This document shows positions 18,882-57,479 of a stretch of DNA of 64,000 nt, in pieces. Under the pieces are notes generated by a model. It was not told the DNA's origin, did not search any database, and saw only the letters and a program-made list of their open reading frames with translations. A program made the translations under genes and the position numbers. Position 1 is the first letter of the stretch, and each line of letters starts with the position of its first letter. This DNA comes from Tricholoma matsutake (lineage: Eukaryota; Basidiomycota; Agaricomycetes; Agaricales; Tricholomataceae), in the NCBI GenBank assembly GCA_026075535.2, contig AP026543.1, forward strand, positions 2,170,001 through 2,234,000. Direction: 5' to 3'.

Positions 18882-19815
18882 CAACCCAAATGGACGAGGC
18901 AAAAGTGAGGTCAGACAAGGCAACTGGAGATTCAGAAAGGGAGATGGACGAGGCAACCAGAGAGGAAGAACGAGGTGAATGAAATGCCAAATAGAGTTAT
19001 GACCAAGATTACAACCAGCAAGTGCTGATTATGTCAGATCATGATCTAATTATAACTCGGGTCATAACCCTCGGCTCTGATTAAGTGGGTCGCTTCGGTT
19101 ATTGCCGGTTATATACCGGGTCGGCAAATTCTGACATAATCCTGAAGTGTGAAATTATCCTCTCATTCTGACTGAAAAAAAAATATACCTGCCAGTGGAA
19201 GGAACAGTCAATTCAATCTCTAATGAAAGAAATTTGCCTACTAAAAGCATCTCATAATGGCATAAAATTTCCATCATATCTCAGGCTGAAAAACACAACC
19301 CTGTTATCCACACCTTTGAGGCAGTAAATATTACCCCATAAATTGTTGAAAAACTTGATGGAAATTCATATGTTAGATGGTTGAAAATCCATACCCTCAT
19401 CTTGGATTAAAATCATCCCTTGTGTTTCATCCCCTTGTAAAATGAAATTTCATCCCATTAGGTTAAGTAAATTTTGTAAGGTAACACATATGAACTCCAT
19501 CCCTTAGATGGCTGGAATATATGGGATGAAAATTCATCCCAAATTCATCCACCATGAATTCAGCCATTTAATTTAGGAAATTCACTTTTTGGCACTTAGA
19601 TGGCTGAAATGGCTACCATGCTAGGTTCACAGTGAGATGGAGAATCCTGGATCAGGGACTCCTGCAACCCCCATTCAACAAAGAAGTCAACATTGAGAGC
19701 AATCACACAAACATGACCCTCTCATCTCTTCAGGACCTTAAAATGACTGTAAAGTAGATTAGAAGCAAGCCGAAGATCACAGAAAACACTGCAGAACTCA
19801 CCGAGTTCAGGGCCC
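18882..19815. other. Intergenic, with a small hairpin repeat
   Basis: No gene seen. A 12-bp inverted repeat GATTATGTCAGA/TCTGACATAATC bounds about 115 bp at 19027-19141 and may be a small MITE, but the flanks show no clear target duplication. The motif TTAGATGG(C/T)TG recurs three times between 19370 and 19620 in an AT-rich stretch. Confidence 0.4.
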
Positions 19816-20043
19816 TATTGGATTATATAATCTGCCACTGCTTAATCAGTGCTTAACAGACCATAGTTTGCACACACACACAAGTGATGTGATAGTTGTA
19901 GCAATCTGTGTCTGGTTATATGGTATCCTTGTTCTGTTGAACCCTATAAGACCTGATAGCTCAGTTGGTCAGAGCATCTGGTATATGTCCAGGAGGGCCT
20001 GGATTCAATCCCCAGTCTGGTCATCTGTTCTGCATTCCTAACA
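19816..20043 (+). repeat. TRIM 5' LTR
   Basis: 228 bp. It differs from the 3' LTR by two substitutions (TA for TG at the first dinucleotide, and G in the T4 tract) and one extra A near the end. The low divergence points to a fairly recent insertion. Confidence 0.8.
19950..20022 (+). other. tRNA-like cassette in TRIM 5' LTR
   Basis: 73 nt fold as a full cloverleaf: acceptor stem GACCTGA/TCTGGTC (6 of 7 pairs), D arm GCTC/GAGC, anticodon stem TCTGG/CCAGG, T arm CTGGA/CCCAG. The A box TAGCTCAGTTGG is consensus and the B box GATTCAATCCC matches 10 of 11 consensus positions. The anticodon loop TATATGT lacks U33, so it is unlikely to work as a tRNA. It is better seen as an internal RNA polymerase III promoter. 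Confidence 0.7.
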
Positions 20044-20058
20044 GGTTATGGGCCCTGG
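20044..20058 (+). promoter_or_regulatory. TRIM primer-binding site (initiator tRNA-Met half)
   Basis: GGTTATGGGCCCTGG directly follows the LTR. Its first 12 bases complement the anticodon-loop half of a fungal initiator tRNA-Met (GGGCCCATAACC), the half-tRNA priming known from copia and Ty5. Confidence 0.7.
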
Positions 20059-20065
20059 CACTTCT

Positions 20066-20398
20066 TGTTGGATTAACAAGCCGTCTTGCGACCTGCATTA
20101 GCATCATCACTCCTTTGTGTTTTGTTCATATATATTTTCGCTTATTAGTGGTACCTTGACATGCAGACCTCATAGTATAAATCTTGTATGATTTCCTGCC
20201 ACCACCTCAGTCATTTGGCTCTCACTCGTGCGCGCAAACACTGAGGTAAATATCCCCTACTTACTTACTACTGTTGTTACTTACTTATGATCTCACCTAG
20301 TTAACTTACTTTTTGTATAGGTGAATAAACAGTTGTTTGGCTCTCACTCGTGCACGCAAACACTGAGTTAACTTTCTTTTCATATAGTAATTCCTACA
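20066..20398 (+). repeat. Copia 5' LTR with 65-bp deletion
   Basis: 333 bp against 398 bp for the 3' LTR. The missing 65 bp lie between two GCATCA repeats in the longer copy, the signature of a microhomology deletion. A block of about 30 bp with TTTGGCTCTC...CAAACACTGAG occurs twice within the LTR. Confidence 0.85.
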
Positions 20399-20426
20399 GG
20401 TTATTGGGCCCTGATTCCCTGCCAAA

Positions 20427-21742
20427 ATGTCTAGCACCACTCTGACCACTACCGACCTCCTCCCTTCATCTGTTCCCAAGCTCAAAGCATCTGGTCTGAA
20501 CTGGACCATCTTCAAGATCCATTTCCAAGATGCTCTCAATGCAAAAGGTTTCTGGGGCCACTTTGATGGCACATCAGTCTGCCCTGTTACCAGTTCCCCT
20601 GCTATGCAACTCCAAGCTGAGGCTGTTGCCACCTGGAACAAGAATGAGTGTACTGTGAAGTCGCTTCTTATGCAGAAGATCCCCGACTCAGCATTGATCT
20701 TGATACACAGCCATAAGCTCGTGAAGGATCAATGGGCCACCATCATCGCAGAATACTCAGAGAAAGGGACATTTGCTCAGACTGAGCTTTGCTCCCAGTT
20801 TTTATGGTTAAAGTGTCCAGAAAAGGGTAACATCCACAAGTTTCTTGATCAGCTTCATGTTGAGTGTGAGAAGCTTGCCACAGTTGGGGTTGACATTGTG
20901 GAGAAAGACTACAGACCCACCATAATCAGCTGTCTACCCCCTGCCCTTGCCAACTTTGCCTCTAGCCTCATAGCCACTGCTCATGTCAATCCATTATCTC
21001 CAAAGAATATGAGCACCACACCACACATCACTCGAATCATGGCAAGGGATCAAAGACTGATGGGCAAGATGAAGCACTAGCTGTAATGTTTGGGAGGGAC
21101 AAGCAGAAGCCTCGTGGGGAGTGTTGGAACTGTGGTGAAAAGGGTCACTACAAAGACAAGTGCACAAAACCACCCAAAGCCAGTGACAAGAAGAGTGACT
21201 CAAAGAAAGGCTCGGCTAATGCTGCAGTAGAGTCCGACTTGGATTCAGAAGCTGGAGGGGCATTTTACATTGAGGCAGATTACAATTCTGACTCAGATGA
21301 TGACTCAATGCCTGATCAGGTGGCTCTATCTGATTTGTCGGATGAATCGGATGCTGGGAATGATGTTCATGGTGACAATGACTGGTTTTCAGAGGTAGAC
21401 AAGGGTGACACAGATGAGATCGGCAGTTGGGAATCTGAGGAGCTATCTGGGGCTGATGAGAGTGAGAGAAGCTCATTTGTCAGTGTTGACCTGGACTCGG
21501 AAGATACTGAGGATATTGTGGCACATGTTGGTGCTGACGATGACGACGCAAACTCACCTCGTGCTGAAATATATGACTCTGGGACCACAAGACACCTCTC
21601 TCCTTTCCGTCATGACCTCGAGAACTTCACTGAAATCTCCCCAAAAACCTTCCGAGCTGCAAACAAACAAAGATTTTCAGCAGCTGGAATGGGCGAGCTT
21701 GTCGTTGACATACCCAATGGTGCTGACAGCTCAAAGTTATGA
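20427..21742 (+). pseudogene. gag: Copia gag and protease region
   Basis: The first part (20427-21080, 217 aa) is a UBN2-type copia Gag (LKASGLNWTIFKIHFQDAL at the start, then FLDQLHVECEKLATVG). It is separated by a stop from the second part (21086-21742). That part has a CCHC knuckle CWNCGEKGHYKDKC, an acidic Ser/Asp-rich linker of about 120 residues and the copia protease motif IYDSGTTRHLSP. The second part ends at a TGA (21740-21742) before the conserved LTEVLYSPEV stretch, so protease and integrase are no longer continuous. Confidence 0.85.
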
Positions 21743-24700
21743 CTCACAGAGGTGTTGTACTCCCCTGAGGTGGGATACACTCTAGTCTTTATCAGCCATT
21801 TGGCTGAGAAAGGGTTCTCAGCAACCTTCTCAGGTGGGAAGTGTACCATCACTGGGCCAGGTTAGAGAAGTCCTGAAAAATCCTCGAGGACTGTATCGTG
21901 TTGATCATGAGCCAGAATCTGCCAGCACAGCAGAGGAGGTACTCGCGTTGGATCAATTGCATTGTCGTCTTGGTCATATTTCAGTTGATGTAGCTAAGAA
22001 GCTTGTGACAAATGGGTTTGTCACAGGTCTCCATCTTGAAAGCACTGCATCAGGGGATAATTTCTTCTGTGAATCTTGCATGTATGCGAAGGCTACCAGG
22101 AAGCCAGTTGCAAAGGCTCAGAGAGGGGAAAGGGCAGCAGAGTTTGGTGACAAAATCCACTCAGACTTATGGGGACCAGTGACAGTTGCTACAAAAGGTG
22201 GAAAGTGTTGCTATGTCACATTTGTCAATGATAACTCACCTTCGCCTCCTTGCTGCCAAATCTGATGCACCTAATGCCTACAAGGAGTTCGAAGCCTGGT
22301 GTAACACTCAGATGAAGAAACCTATAAACATTCTGCACTCAGACCATGGTGGTGAATACATGGGGAGGCAGTTTGTTCTGTACCTGAAGTTGAAAGGTAC
22401 TGATCAGAAGCTCATGGTGCATGACACACCACAGGAGAATGGAGTCATGGAACAGTGGAACAGTGGAACTGCACCATTGTTGAGTGCATCCGAGCATTGT
22501 TACACTCTAGTGGCCTTCCAAAGACATTGTGGGGAGAGGCAGCCCAACACATTGTCTGGTTGATGAACCATACATTGACAAAGGCTGTTGCTGGTATGAT
22601 GCCGTATGAGGCCACATTTGGGAAGAAACCAGACCTTAGCAATGTCCGCGAGTGGGGCGAGAAAGTTTGGGTGAGAATTGAGGGTGGAACAAGTTGGGTG
22701 GGCATGTCAGGGAGGGTCATTGGCTTGGTATTGATGAGAGGGGTAATGGCTGTAGAGTCTACTGGCCAGATAAGTGAACTGTGACAACTGAACACAACAT
22801 ACACTTTGACAAAACTCACATGTCAGCAGAATGGCTCAAGGGGGAGGATTGGCATTTCATCGACCCATCTTCTGACCCACTCACCTCAGATTCTACCTCA
22901 GTACCTCCACCTACACCAGCACCTTCTACTTCTGCACCTCCTGCATCACCTCCTGCACCACCTCCTGCACCACTCCAGTCCAAAGATCCTGTCAAAGATG
23001 AAGCAACATCATTGAGACATATTTGGAAACCTAGTCAACGCATCCAAGACATTCTCACTGGCCGTGGAGTCACCTCTGCATGCCCATCTGACCCTCAAGT
23101 TGCCTCAGGCATACAGTTTCCAACTGTCAATGAGACTACTGAGTTTGAGGGGGAGGGAACAGCAGACTGGATGATGGTGGCAGATTTTGTCAAGGAGTAT
23201 GCAATGGCAGCCGAGATCAGTGAGGCAGAAGCACTGGAGCCGAGGACTTTGGCTGAAGTGAAAGGTCATCCTGATTGGCCACTGTGGGAGAAAGCAATTC
23301 AGGAAGAGTTGGCACTCTTGAAGGAGACTGGGACATATAAGCTTGCAAATCCACCTGCAGACACAAACATTGTTGGCTCGAAATAGGTTTTCCATGCAAA
23401 GAAGGATGCTGCAGGAAACATCATCCATTATAAGGCTCGTCTCATCGCTCAAGACTTCTCCCAAGTACTTGGCATCAACTACTTTGACACCTTTGCTCCT
23501 GTTGCCAAACTCGCATCGATTCATACAGTCCTTGCTATGGCTGCCCACTTGGATCTCGAGCTCCATCATATCTACATCAAGGGAGCCTATTTAAATGGTG
23601 AACTCACCTCTCATGAACACATCTACATGAAGCAACCCCCAGGCTCCCATGCTCCCAACTTTTCGGGCCAAGTTTAGCATCTCATCAAAACCCTCTATGG
23701 CCTAAAACAGTTGGTGGGCTGTTGGTATCACAAACTCATTGAGATTATGCTTGGGCATCTTAGATTCTCTTGGTGTGATGTCGACCAAGCTGTCTTCTTT
23801 TGTCATGATGGGAAGAGTCTCACCATCGTGCTTGTTCACGTTGACAACTGCACCATCGCCACCTCCTCAATCACCCTAATCTCTGATGTCAAACAAAAAA
23901 TCTCTGAACATGTCAAAATCACTGACCTTGGGGAACTCCACTGGCTTCTCAGTATCAAAATATGTTGTGACCGTGAACATCGATCCATCCACATTTCCTA
24001 ACACTCCTATATTGACTCTATAATTCATCATTACAATCTTCAGGATTTGAAACCTGTCTCCACCCCAATGGAAACTCACCTCCGTCTCTCGACATCTCAG
24101 TCACCTTCTACTACTGCTGAATTTGCTCAAATGCACAACATTCCCTACCATGAAGCTGTTGGTTCTTTGATGTATGCATCACTCAGCACCTGGATATCTC
24201 CTTTGCTGTGCAAACTATCTTGTGCTTCTTGACAAAAGCTGGCTGGGCACACTGGGAAGCAGTAAAATAGATCTTCTGCTACTTGAAAAGAATGAATGAG
24301 TTGTGGTTGTCGTACAGTGGAACCAAAGGGAAGCTAACTGGTTTTGCTGATGCTGATGGGAATATGGCTGAAGATTGCCATGCTATCTCCGGGTATGTGT
24401 TTCTTCTTCACGGTGGCACCATTTCATGCAGTGCTAAGCATCAAGAGATCATTTCCCTCTCTACCACTGAGAGTGAGTACATTGCTGCCACCCACACTGC
24501 CAAGGAAGCTCTGTGGCTGTGTTCCCTCATCACTCGACGTTTCTCACTCGAGCTCAGCCCCACAACACTCTTTTCTGACAACCAATCTGCAATCGCTCTC
24601 ACGCAAGATCACCAGTACCATGCTTGCACCAAGCATATCGACATCTGCTTCCACTTTATCCGCTGGATTGTCAAACAAGGTTCACTCCATCTCATCTATT

Positions 24701-24798
24701 GTCCTACAGACAATATGATTGCAGACACTCTTACCAAAGCACTTCCCTCAGCAAAAGTCAAACATTTTGGCTCTCAACTTGGTCTCTCGATAGCTTGA
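21743..24798 (+). pseudogene. pol: Copia integrase-RT-RNase H remnant
   Basis: Blocks in order: GAG-pre-integrase (21834-22130, LDQLHCRLGHIS and CESCMYAKATRKP), integrase core (HSDLWGPV, then HSDHGGEYMG and HDTPQENGVMEQ) with a frameshift near 22240 and a second near 22455, a Pro/Ser-rich linker, RT (23230-24230), and RNase H (24340-24798). The RNase H keeps SLSTTESEYIA and TKHIDI and ends at the stop that overlaps the purine tract. The RT box reads HVDN where YVDD is expected; the Asn codon at 23846-23848 follows GAC and could be GAC GAC altered at its CpG. Stops at about 23384 and 23675 (TAG) sit where Trp is usual. Confidence 0.88.
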
Positions 24799-24805
24799 GG
24801 GGGAG

Positions 24806-25203
24806 TGTTGGATTAACAAGCTGTCTTGTGACCTGCATTAGCATCAATTCCCTGGACTGTGTAACCACAATCATGATACCTCATTTGCCTCTCTTGTCTA
24901 TTATATTGGCATCACTCCTTTGGGTTTTGTTCATATATCTTTTCACTTATTAGTGGTACCTTGACATGCAGACCTCATAGTATAAATCTTGTATGATTTC
25001 CTGCCACCACCTTAGTCGTTTGGCTCTTGCTTGCATGCACAAACACTGAGGTAAATATCCTCTACTTACTTACCACTGTCATTACTTACTTATGATCTCA
25101 CCTAGTTAACTTACTTTTTGTATAGGTGAATAAACAGTTGTTTGGCTCTCGCTCACGTGCGCAAACACTGAGTTAACTTACTTTTCATATAGTAATTCCT
25201 ACA
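24806..25203 (+). repeat. Copia 3' LTR
   Basis: 398 bp, the longer and presumably complete version. Differences from the 5' LTR include several CG versus TG/CA positions (for example CACTCGTGCGCGC against the TG/CA-rich counterpart). Confidence 0.85.
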
Positions 25204-25253
25204 CTTCTGTCAGATTACCTGAGCAGATTAAGATGTGCCAGATTAAGGGGGTG

Positions 25254-25480
25254 TGTTGGATTATATAATCTGCCACTGCTTAATCAGTGCTTAACAGACC
25301 ATAGTTTGCACACACACACAAGTGATGTGATAGTTGTAGCAATCTGTGTCTGGTTATATGGTATCCTTGTTCTGTTGAACCCTATAAGACCTGATAGCTC
25401 AGTTGGTCAGAGCATCTGGTATATGTCCAGGAGGGCCTGGATTCAATCCCCAGTCTGGTCATCTTTTCTGCATTCCTACA
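25254..25480 (+). repeat. TRIM 3' LTR with tRNA-like cassette
   Basis: 227 bp. The tRNA-like part is 25388-25460 and identical to the 5' LTR copy. It is followed 3 bp later by TTTT (25464-25467), a minimal polymerase III terminator, which the 5' LTR has lost through one T to G change. It ends CATTCCTACA before the target duplication GGCCC. Confidence 0.8.
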
Positions 25481-25485
25481 GGCCC

Positions 25486-25932
25486 CCCTGCCTCACCCAA
25501 AAATGAGACTGTTGAAACCTATAAACCTGTGGATAAGGGTACTGTGTTGCATGGGTAGGGCAATCCCAAACCCACACCCATACCCATGCATACCTGTGAC
25601 CACATTGTCACAGTGTTACCCATACCCATGCTATACCTTAACCTCAGCAAGTTTCAAGCTGAGAGTCAGAACACTGATGTTGGGTGAGGCACTGCCATAT
25701 TGGGGAGTGGGAGCCTAAGAAAACATGTCCAAACACCATGTGGCCACCCATCATATCTCAATTGAGCAGTTGTCAGTGAATTCACCTTCATGTACATAAC
25801 TTCCTGTACTTACTTCCTCCAATTTTAAATATACATTGTAGTAAATTATTTGCTGTATAGTCTCCAAATATTGAAATGGCCAAGTACCAGGGTGGCCCAG
25901 TAGGTGAGGCAGTATTCTGACATCATCAATCA
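25486..25932. other. No recognisable gene
   Basis: Short ORFs only. The right part may continue the same ancestral locus as 32420-32599 on the other side of the MITE and Ty3 insertions, but no continuous coding frame crosses the rejoined junction. Confidence 0.4.
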
Positions 25933-56840: not shown

Positions 56841-57242
56841 TTGGAGTGGCCCTTTTGACCCTGATTGCAAAGAAAAAGGGTTGAAGATTGAGAGAGTTTT
56901 GTTTGACATAGTGATTGTGGTTAGGGATCAAGATAATCATGTTTACATAATACAGGATGTTTTTAGTCATAGAGGGGAGGTATAATTAGCATTTGTTGAT
57001 CTAAATGCATGGTCAGCCCTCAATGCTAATCTGTGCCATAAAGCCTGCTGGCAATTAGCATAGGCTAGCAGGCCAGGAAGGGTATTCTCAGAGTGCAAGG
57101 CTGACTGCCACCATTGGTTGTGATAGATGAAATACTGCATGGTCCACTGCATTTCATATGTGACCAGTAGAAATTCCTCCCTCCATCTATTTCTCTGAGC
57201 CCATGATCAAAGCCAATGTACTCACCTGACTATGAGAAATGT

Positions 57243-57466
57243 TGTTGGATTATATAATCTGTCACTGCTTAATCAGTGCTTAACAGACCATAGTTTGCAC
57301 ACACACACAAGTGATGTGATAGTTGTAGCAATCTGTGTCTGGTTATATGGTATCCTTGTTCTGTTGAACCCTATAAGACCTGGTAGCTCAGTTGGTCAGA
57401 GCATCTGGTATATGTCCAGGAGGGCCTGGATTCAATCCCCAGTCTGGTCATCTTTTCTGTTTAACA
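57243..57466 (+). repeat. TRIM solo LTR with tRNA-like cassette
   Basis: 224 bp matching the TRIM LTRs at 19816 and 25254, flanked by its own 5-bp target duplication AATGT (57238-57242 and 57467-57471). The tRNA-like part is 57377-57449, with one change (G for A at acceptor position 7), followed by TTTT. The final bases before ACA differ from the other copies. It shows that the family inserted independently. Confidence 0.8.
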
Positions 57467-57479
57467 AATGTTAGTGAAA

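What the first reader, a model, noticed from the sequence alone, without database searches (positions are those of the whole stretch)
19816..25480. A TRIM whose LTRs carry a complete tRNA-like polymerase III cassette
Seen: two 227-228 bp LTRs with 5-bp target duplication GGCCC, a 67-bp interior with initiator-tRNA primer site and purine tract, and in each LTR a 73-nt cloverleaf with consensus A box, near-consensus B box and, in two of three family copies, a T4 terminator. A third copy at 57243-57466 is a solo LTR with its own duplication AATGT. Known: plant Cassandra TRIMs carry a 5S rRNA promoter in the LTR. Inference: this fungal family uses a captured tRNA gene in the same way, so its RNA would be made by polymerase III, starting inside the LTR. 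I know of no described fungal equivalent.
Basis: partly seen in the sequence, partly recalled or inferred. Interest (0 to 1): 0.88.

Follow-up and report, generated by a model that had tools for sequence, protein, structure and literature searches.

The report
Matsutake mini-retrotransposon with tRNA promoter
A very short mobile element in the matsutake mushroom carries a tRNA-like gene inside each of its end repeats, probably as its own promoter; it belongs to a kind of element already described in 2024, and it may explain why a close relative of matsutake seems to have hundreds of odd isoleucine tRNA genes.

Summary
In detail: a TRIM with 228/227-bp LTRs, TSD GGCCC and a 67-bp interior split by a 5.1-kb Copia, plus a solo LTR with TSD AATGT. 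Each LTR holds a tRNA-like cassette (50.4 bits in the one tested) with A box and near-consensus B box; two of three keep a T4. The genome matches the T2T Tricholoma matsutake assembly. It holds 208 places of the cassette word, 38 interiors and two further LTR families with the cassette. Between families A and B the cassette is 92% identical while the rest of U3 aligns poorly; within family A the conservation test is not significant and the B box is not conserved.

The claim of no fungal equivalent is wrong: this is 'Helenus' (Kojima 2024, PMC10886601), which names no Tricholoma. New here: new families and host; an LTR terminator of exactly T4 in 56 of 59 copies; a Helenus/Copia mosaic; and a likely cause of the published tRNA-Ile(TAT) excess in T. 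bakamatsutake, since 65 of 66 cassettes tested are called tRNA-Ile(TAT). Polymerase III use remains inferred. Verdict: new member of a known kind.

The parts
19811..19815 (.). target site duplication GGCCC (5' side)
19816..20043 (+). TRIM 5' LTR, 228 bp (TATTGG...CCTAACA)
19950..20023 (+). tRNA-like cassette in 5' LTR, called tRNA-Ile(TAT)
19957..19968 (+). A box TAGCTCAGTTGG
20001..20011 (+). B box GGATTCAATCC (43 of 66 cassettes read GGGTTCAATCCC)
20026..20029 (+). terminator position, here TGTT instead of TTTT
20044..20057 (+). primer binding site GGTTATGGGCCCTG; of the initiator-tRNA anticodon-loop type described for fungal Helenus (primer gene not found in this genome)
   Evidence: negative
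20061..20065 (.). target site duplication CTTCT of nested Copia (5' side)
20066..25203 (+). nested, broken Copia element inside the TRIM interior (LTRs 20066-20398 and 24806-25203; Copia gag, beta-barrel and pre-integrase domains above cut-off, zinc knuckle just below)
25204..25208 (.). target site duplication CTTCT of nested Copia (3' side)
25245..25253 (+). polypurine tract AAGGGGGTG
   Evidence: sequence
25254..25480 (+). TRIM 3' LTR, 227 bp (TGTTGG...CCTACA)
25388..25461 (+). tRNA-like cassette in 3' LTR, Rfam tRNA 50.4 bits
25395..25406 (+). A box
25439..25449 (+). B box GGATTCAATCC
25464..25467 (+). T4, putative polymerase III terminator
25481..25485 (.). target site duplication GGCCC (3' side)
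57243..57466 (+). solo LTR of the same family (other LTR 3' end, ..CTGTTTAACA), TSD AATGT at 57238-57242 and 57467-57471
57377..57450 (+). tRNA-like cassette in the solo LTR; T4 at 57453-57456

Best explanation
A Helenus-type TRIM of Tricholoma matsutake, non-coding and moved in trans by Copia machinery. The tRNA-like cassette (LTR 135-208) is its promoter. Inferred cycle: polymerase III binds A and B box, starts about 20 nt upstream of the A box (general knowledge of tRNA genes, recalled; near LTR 122), reads through the weak T4 of the 5' LTR in part of the rounds, crosses the 67-bp interior and stops at the T4 of the 3' LTR (LTR 211-214), giving a RNA of about 390 nt. Then R = LTR 122-214 (the cassette itself), U3 = 1-121, U5 = 13 nt. 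Reverse transcription is primed at GGTTATGGGCCC, probably by the initiator tRNA's anticodon arm, and Copia integrase inserts the DNA with 5-bp duplications. Shown: anatomy, LTR-type integration, copy number, shared cassette in three families, T4 constancy. Inferred: polymerase III use, start and stop, read-through, Copia partner, primer tRNA.
For: LTR/PBS/PPT/TSD anatomy (TSD in 28 of 37 solo LTRs). 208 places of the cassette word, 38 interiors (38 candidates, all scored). Cassettes listed score 41-60 bits against 61 for the best ordinary tRNA. Between families A and B cassette 68/74 identical, other U3 76/111 with many gaps; family C (one copy) aligns over LTR tip, cassette and T4 but poorly between. 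T4 is the longest T run in 56 of 59 family-A LTRs; in 10 ordinary tRNA genes of this genome the first T run is 4,4,4,5,5,5,5,6,6,7, so T4 is at the weak but usable end. Loop position 33 is A, not U, in all 66 cassettes examined, so the constraint is not for decoding. Copia link: same 5-bp TSD, near-identical PBS in the nested Copia (GGTTATTGGGCCCTG) and LTR ends TGTTGGATTA..ATTCCTACA, and a Helenus/Copia mosaic joined at the PBS.
Against: No RNA data. Within family A the excess of shared variants outside the cassette is not significant (p = 0.70 for 33 copies, 0.46 for 59), and the B box varies more than U3 (0.0275 against 0.0161 substitutions per copy and site in the 33; 0.0231 against 0.0184 in the 59). 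A T4 in the 5' LTR should stop polymerase III at least partly before the interior. No Copia sharing part of the TRIM interior was found: 37 of 38 interior matches cover it whole, the other is the window's own split copy. No initiator tRNA gene was found by three patterns. 26 of the 59 family-A copies (59 less the 33 of the whole-LTR search and the window) came from searches keyed on the cassette or on tRNA score and lean towards conserved cassettes.
Confidence: 0.62

Rival explanations
1. Polymerase III uses the cassette but stops at the T4 of the 5' LTR, so that it makes only a short tRNA-Ile-like RNA of about 90 nt; the RNA that transposes comes from a polymerase II start in U3, and the cassette serves another end (insulation, expression, packaging signal).
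For: In family A the T4 sits 2 nt behind the cassette, and 2 of 10 ordinary tRNA genes here have nothing longer than T4 in 45 nt. A TATATGG motif lies upstream of the cassette in families A and B.
Against: TATATGG lies 33 bases before the cassette in A and 56 in the B copy counted by hand. The T run is held at exactly 4 rather than longer, which fits leakiness better than a strict stop.
Confidence: 0.22
2. The cassette is a passenger: an old capture that hitch-hikes in the LTR while a polymerase II promoter in U3 drives the element.
For: No significant sign of selection on the cassette within family A, and a B box that varies more than U3; the window's own copies have a B-box change.
Against: Cassette far better conserved than the rest of U3 between families A and B and spared in C; A box and T4 kept while the decoding base U33 is lost.
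Confidence: 0.13
3. The tRNA-like part is a later SINE insertion into an ordinary LTR.
For: Kojima proposes SINE insertion as the ancient origin of such LTRs.
Against: No LTR read here lacks the cassette where the LTR is complete. Of 16 family-B LTR starts, 14 have the cassette word 156-166 bases on, 1 has it 903 bases on (gap not read) and 1 has a slightly changed cassette. Of 72 U3-chosen places, 63 carry a perfect cassette word and 2 more a changed one; 7 were not read. By eye no target duplication flanks the cassette; not tested by a tool.
Confidence: 0.03

Closest known systems
Helenus (Kojima 2024, PMC10886601): TRIMs with a tRNA-like sequence in the LTR, from fungi, animals and one lycophyte
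   Same: TRIM under about 1 kb, tRNA-like sequence in the LTR with A and B boxes, PBS of the initiator-tRNA anticodon-loop type, PPT, 5-bp TSD, Copia link in fungi, solo LTRs, predicted tRNA genes inflated
   Different: New host genus (no Tricholoma in that paper); cassette called tRNA-Ile(TAT), where that text names His, Thr, Ser, Ala, Pro, Val and suppressor types and mentions tRNA-Ile only as primer; T4 behind the cassette analysed here, terminators being mentioned there once, for Cassandra. Published consensus sequences were not compared.
Cassandra (plant TRIM with 5S rRNA promoter in the LTR)
   Same: Same logic: small-RNA gene in the LTR as promoter and terminator of a TRIM (from Kojima's introduction)
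   Different: 5S rRNA instead of tRNA; plants; described by Kojima as the only validated case
tRNA-derived SINEs (general knowledge)
   Same: tRNA-like polymerase III promoter, short, non-coding
   Different: No LTRs, PBS or PPT in SINEs; move by non-LTR machinery
Copia elements of the same genome (nested copy, and the mosaic at L029)
   Same: LTR ends, PBS type, 5-bp TSD of the nested copy
   Different: Coding, longer LTRs; no tRNA was called in the nested copy's LTRs

Membership tests
Helenus (TRIMp3) | non-coding TRIM under 1 kb with two LTRs | tested here: met
   228 + 67 + 227 bp
Helenus (TRIMp3) | tRNA-like sequence inside the LTR with A and B boxes | tested here: met
   Of 66 cassettes, 59 have A box TAGCTCAGTTGG, 4 (family B) TAGCTCAGTGGT, 3 other; B box GGGTTCAATCCC in 43, GGATTC in the 3 window copies, 4 other forms, 16 not matched by my expression
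Helenus (TRIMp3) | 5-bp target site duplication in fungi | tested here: met
   28 of 37 solo LTRs perfect; window TRIM and solo LTR perfect
Helenus (TRIMp3) | PBS for the anticodon loop of a tRNA, initiator Met in most fungal families | tested here: inconclusive
   PBS GGTTATGGGCCCTG in families A and B is of that type; primer gene not found
Helenus (TRIMp3) | polypurine tract before the 3' LTR | tested here: met
   AAGGGGGTG in A, GGGGGAG in B
Helenus (TRIMp3) | mobilised by Copia | tested here: inconclusive
   PBS, LTR tips and TSD length agree and a mosaic exists; no partner sharing the interior
Helenus (TRIMp3) | sequence similarity to published Helenus consensus sequences | not tested
Helenus (TRIMp3) | transcription by polymerase III | not testable with these tools
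   no RNA or occupancy data; also unproven in the source paper
Cassandra | 5S rRNA sequence in the LTR | tested here: not met
   the only Rfam match in the stretch 25340-25490 of LTR2 is tRNA; no 5S match in the window
tRNA-derived SINE | no LTRs, PBS or PPT | tested here: not met
   LTRs, PBS, PPT and LTR-type TSD present

The most novel reading that the evidence does not exclude
The cassette is a combined start/stop device: a polymerase III promoter with a terminator tuned to exactly four Ts, weak enough to be read through in the 5' LTR and strong enough to end RNA in the 3' LTR, so that the R region of the retrotransposon is the tRNA-like gene itself. It would be the polymerase III counterpart of the one-sided poly(A) control of ordinary LTR elements. 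As a by-product, many of the 'tRNA genes' predicted in matsutake-type genomes would be retrotransposon promoters that make tRNA-Ile-like RNA which cannot decode.
Probability: 0.33. Interest if true: 0.62.

Novelty: new member of a known kind. Interest (0 to 1): 0.4.

Why it matters
It extends Helenus to Tricholoma. It also offers a concrete explanation for a published oddity: the T. bakamatsutake paper reports 365 tRNA genes, 277 of them Ile and 275 of those with a TAT anticodon, without explaining it (PMC10627285, section 13 read). Here 65 of 66 cassettes are called tRNA-Ile(TAT), and 43 of the 53 tRNA-family matches listed for this genome are such cassettes (63 of 11,061 candidates scored; classified). 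The T. bakamatsutake genome itself was not searched. tRNA gene counts of these fungi should be checked for such cassettes. Near-identical copies, two LTR 3' ends and a constant T4 make the start/stop question directly testable by RNA mapping.

Tried and rejected
Initiator tRNA gene as primer: three pattern searches (patterns from recalled tRNA features) found none; the third only met another repeat at 3 mismatches. Autonomous partner through the shared interior: none. Conservation within family A by shared against singleton variants: not significant, and the B box is more variable than U3. An RNA-derived copy: the 5' LTR at C13:8517520 begins exactly at LTR 122, where polymerase III would start, and its upstream flank does not resemble U3 (score 109 against shuffled mean 97, maximum 132), but its 3' LTR is complete and I saw no duplication, so it stays a curiosity. 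A screen for other copies starting at that base gave 6 places: this one, 4 with whole or nearly whole LTRs and the family-C copy, which only carry a base change there. Recombination between U3 haplotype and LTR 3' end: sites 92/93 show mixed combinations, but they are a CpG and may mutate repeatedly; four linked sites (36, 68, 82, 83) also occur with both ends (3 and 2 copies); not used as evidence. Local gene conversion in the window: the three window copies share one base (LTR 188 A, 0 of 56 others), too little.
Full report
WHAT IS THERE. The window lies in G000:C6:2170001-2234000. G000 has 161,040,721 bases in 13 contigs; that total and the lengths of C12 and C13 are those printed for the telomere-to-telomere Tricholoma matsutake assembly (PMC10211490, passages seen). 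The coordinates of the finding are right. The 67-bp interior is interrupted by a Copia element of 5,138 bp with its own duplication CTTCT. Six open frames of it were scanned: Copia gag, beta-barrel and pre-integrase domains pass Pfam's cut-off, zinc knuckle and SH3 fall below it, two frames match nothing; the reading frame is in pieces.

THE FAMILY. A 25-base word across the A box has 208 places (up to 3 mismatches), 0 in the reversed control; a few belong to other families, such as the family-B copy of L098, whose word differs by one base. The interior has 38 places, all candidates scored, so most cassettes are not in two-LTR elements; among the first 100 listed, 11 pairs lie 270-310 bases apart. 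From loci fetched I kept 71 distinct matches (repeats and matches near locus ends dropped), of which 59 are family-A LTRs complete or nearly so. Of these 37 are solo, 11 are 5' and 11 are 3' LTRs; 28 of 37 solo LTRs have a perfect 5-bp duplication, against 2.5% when flanks are shuffled. LTRs end either ..CTGCATTCCTACA (38 copies) or ..CTGTTTAACA (21) behind the T4 (a cruder rule gave 40 and 19). In 8 fetched 5' LTRs followed by an ordinary TRIM interior, each end type goes with its own interior type, 4 and 4.

TWO MORE FAMILIES. tRNA-family hits led to solo LTRs of 250-262 bp (family B; five read, duplications AAAAT, GAAAC, AAAAT, GGCTT, AGATG), and to one two-LTR element, of which I read the middle: its PBS is the same GGTTATGGGCCCTG. 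Family C is one solo LTR with duplication GGTTA. They begin TGTTGGATTA..TAATCTG (small variants occur) and keep cassette and T4. A against B: cassette 68/74, other U3 76/111 with many gaps, p = 1.3e-4 for one B copy (the five B copies give 66-68 and 72-77). Homology of the U3 middle is weak (3 of 300 shuffles as good). So the cassette was most likely in the LTR before the families split and has been held since. Inside family A alone it fails to reach significance: substitutions per copy and site are 0.0161 in U3 and 0.0074 in the cassette (33 copies), but shared and singleton variants do not differ (p = 0.70; 0.46 for 59 copies), the A box is quiet (0.0025) and the B box is not (0.0275).

IS THE CASSETTE EVER ABSENT? 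Of 72 perfect U3-word places on C1-C6, 63 have a perfect cassette word 60-100 bases on, and 2 of the other 9 appear as tRNA hits; 7 were not read. Of 16 family-B starts (leaving out one family-A variant), 14 have the cassette word 156-166 bases on, one 903 bases on, and one has a slightly changed cassette, read.

PROMOTER, NOT tRNA. Cassettes listed in the genome search score 41-60 bits but have A at position 33 in all 66 examined (loop TATATGT in 63, three variants) and a T-T mismatch in the acceptor stem of those aligned, so I expect no decoding function (general tRNA knowledge). ARAGORN of 66 Ile(TAT), one Val. In the genome-wide tRNA search 53 matches were listed (63 of 11,061 candidates scored, so a capped sample); I count 43 of these as Helenus cassettes and 10 as ordinary genes.

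A PUBLISHED ODDITY. The T. bakamatsutake paper found 277 tRNA-Ile genes, 275 with anticodon TAT, and only calls it interesting (PMC10627285, section 13 read; a word search of that text shows no further mention). Table 2 of PMC11595502 gives 275-304 tRNA genes for six T. matsutake strains. I infer that Helenus cassettes cause much of this; the other genomes were not searched.

TERMINATOR. 56 of 59 family-A LTRs have T4 as longest T run behind the cassette; the others have 2, 3 and 6. Ten ordinary tRNA genes have first runs 4,4,4,5,5,5,5,6,6,7; two (the same Ile gene type) have nothing longer than 4 within 45 nt. T4 is thus a usable but weak stop here, which would let RNA start in one LTR and end in the other. 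The read-through is inference.

COPIA LINK. The nested Copia has PBS GGTTATTGGGCCCTG and LTR tips like the TRIM's. At C6:5414807 (L029) a Helenus interior and LTR are followed by a Copia-type PBS and a Copia gag frame (Pfam Retrotran_gag_2) and preceded by what looks like a Copia LTR end (it shares only a short motif with the nested copy's LTR), joined at the PBS on both sides. The downstream junction word has one place in the genome at up to 3 mismatches. It fits a one-LTR Helenus circle crossing over at the shared PBS, or a template switch.

PRIOR WORK. Kojima 2024 (PMC10886601; abstract, introduction, methods, results 3.1-3.6 and part of 3.7, discussion, legends and tables read, the rest by word search; [quoted passage not shown] Tricholoma is not mentioned. 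A search for 'Helenus' with tRNA and LTR retrotransposon returned only that paper; 'TRIMp3' returned four, three of them on unrelated subjects. Two searches around Tricholoma, TRIM and mushrooms showed no such element in the titles listed (10 of 604 and 10 of 5,167 papers listed). The supplement could not be read, so related sequences may be in Repbase.

VERDICT. Value lies in the new host, the T4 regularity, and the likely answer to the Ile(TAT) puzzle.

Noticed in passing
L029 (G000:C6:5413307-5416531, minus strand): Mosaic: Copia-like LTR end, PBS, TRIM interior, Helenus LTR, Copia-type PBS, Copia gag. The downstream junction word has one place in the genome.
   Followed up: partly
window 19816-25480: Age paradox: the Copia nested in the TRIM has LTRs differing at 16 of 329 aligned sites and in length (333 and 398 bp), while the enclosing, hence older, TRIM has LTRs differing at 2 of 227. 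LTR conversion or unequal Copia LTRs at insertion could explain it.
   Followed up: partly
window 20001-20011, 25439-25449, 57428-57438: All three window copies share a B-box change (LTR 188 A) seen in 0 of 56 other copies, although the solo LTR lies about 32 kb from the TRIM and has the other LTR 3' end.
   Followed up: partly
L002 / L096 (G000:C13:8517520-8517920): 5' LTR begins exactly at LTR position 122, the expected polymerase III start, while interior and 3' LTR are complete; no target duplication seen by eye.
   Followed up: partly
L084 (G000:C2:1874482) and L059 (G000:C2:10298144): Single Helenus LTRs followed by 14 and 10 nt of PBS and then flank, as if an early reverse-transcription product had been integrated.
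   Followed up: no
L019 (G000:C8:8582910-8583428): One element with 5' LTR of the TTTAACA type and 3' LTR of the CATTCCTACA type and no target duplication by eye: probably a recombinant between two copies.
   Followed up: no
G000, 102 places such as C1:690594: A repeat reading GGGGAGTGGGATCGCCTTGGGCTCATA (letters shown for the first 12 places), met at 3 mismatches when looking for the initiator tRNA; nature unknown.
   Followed up: no
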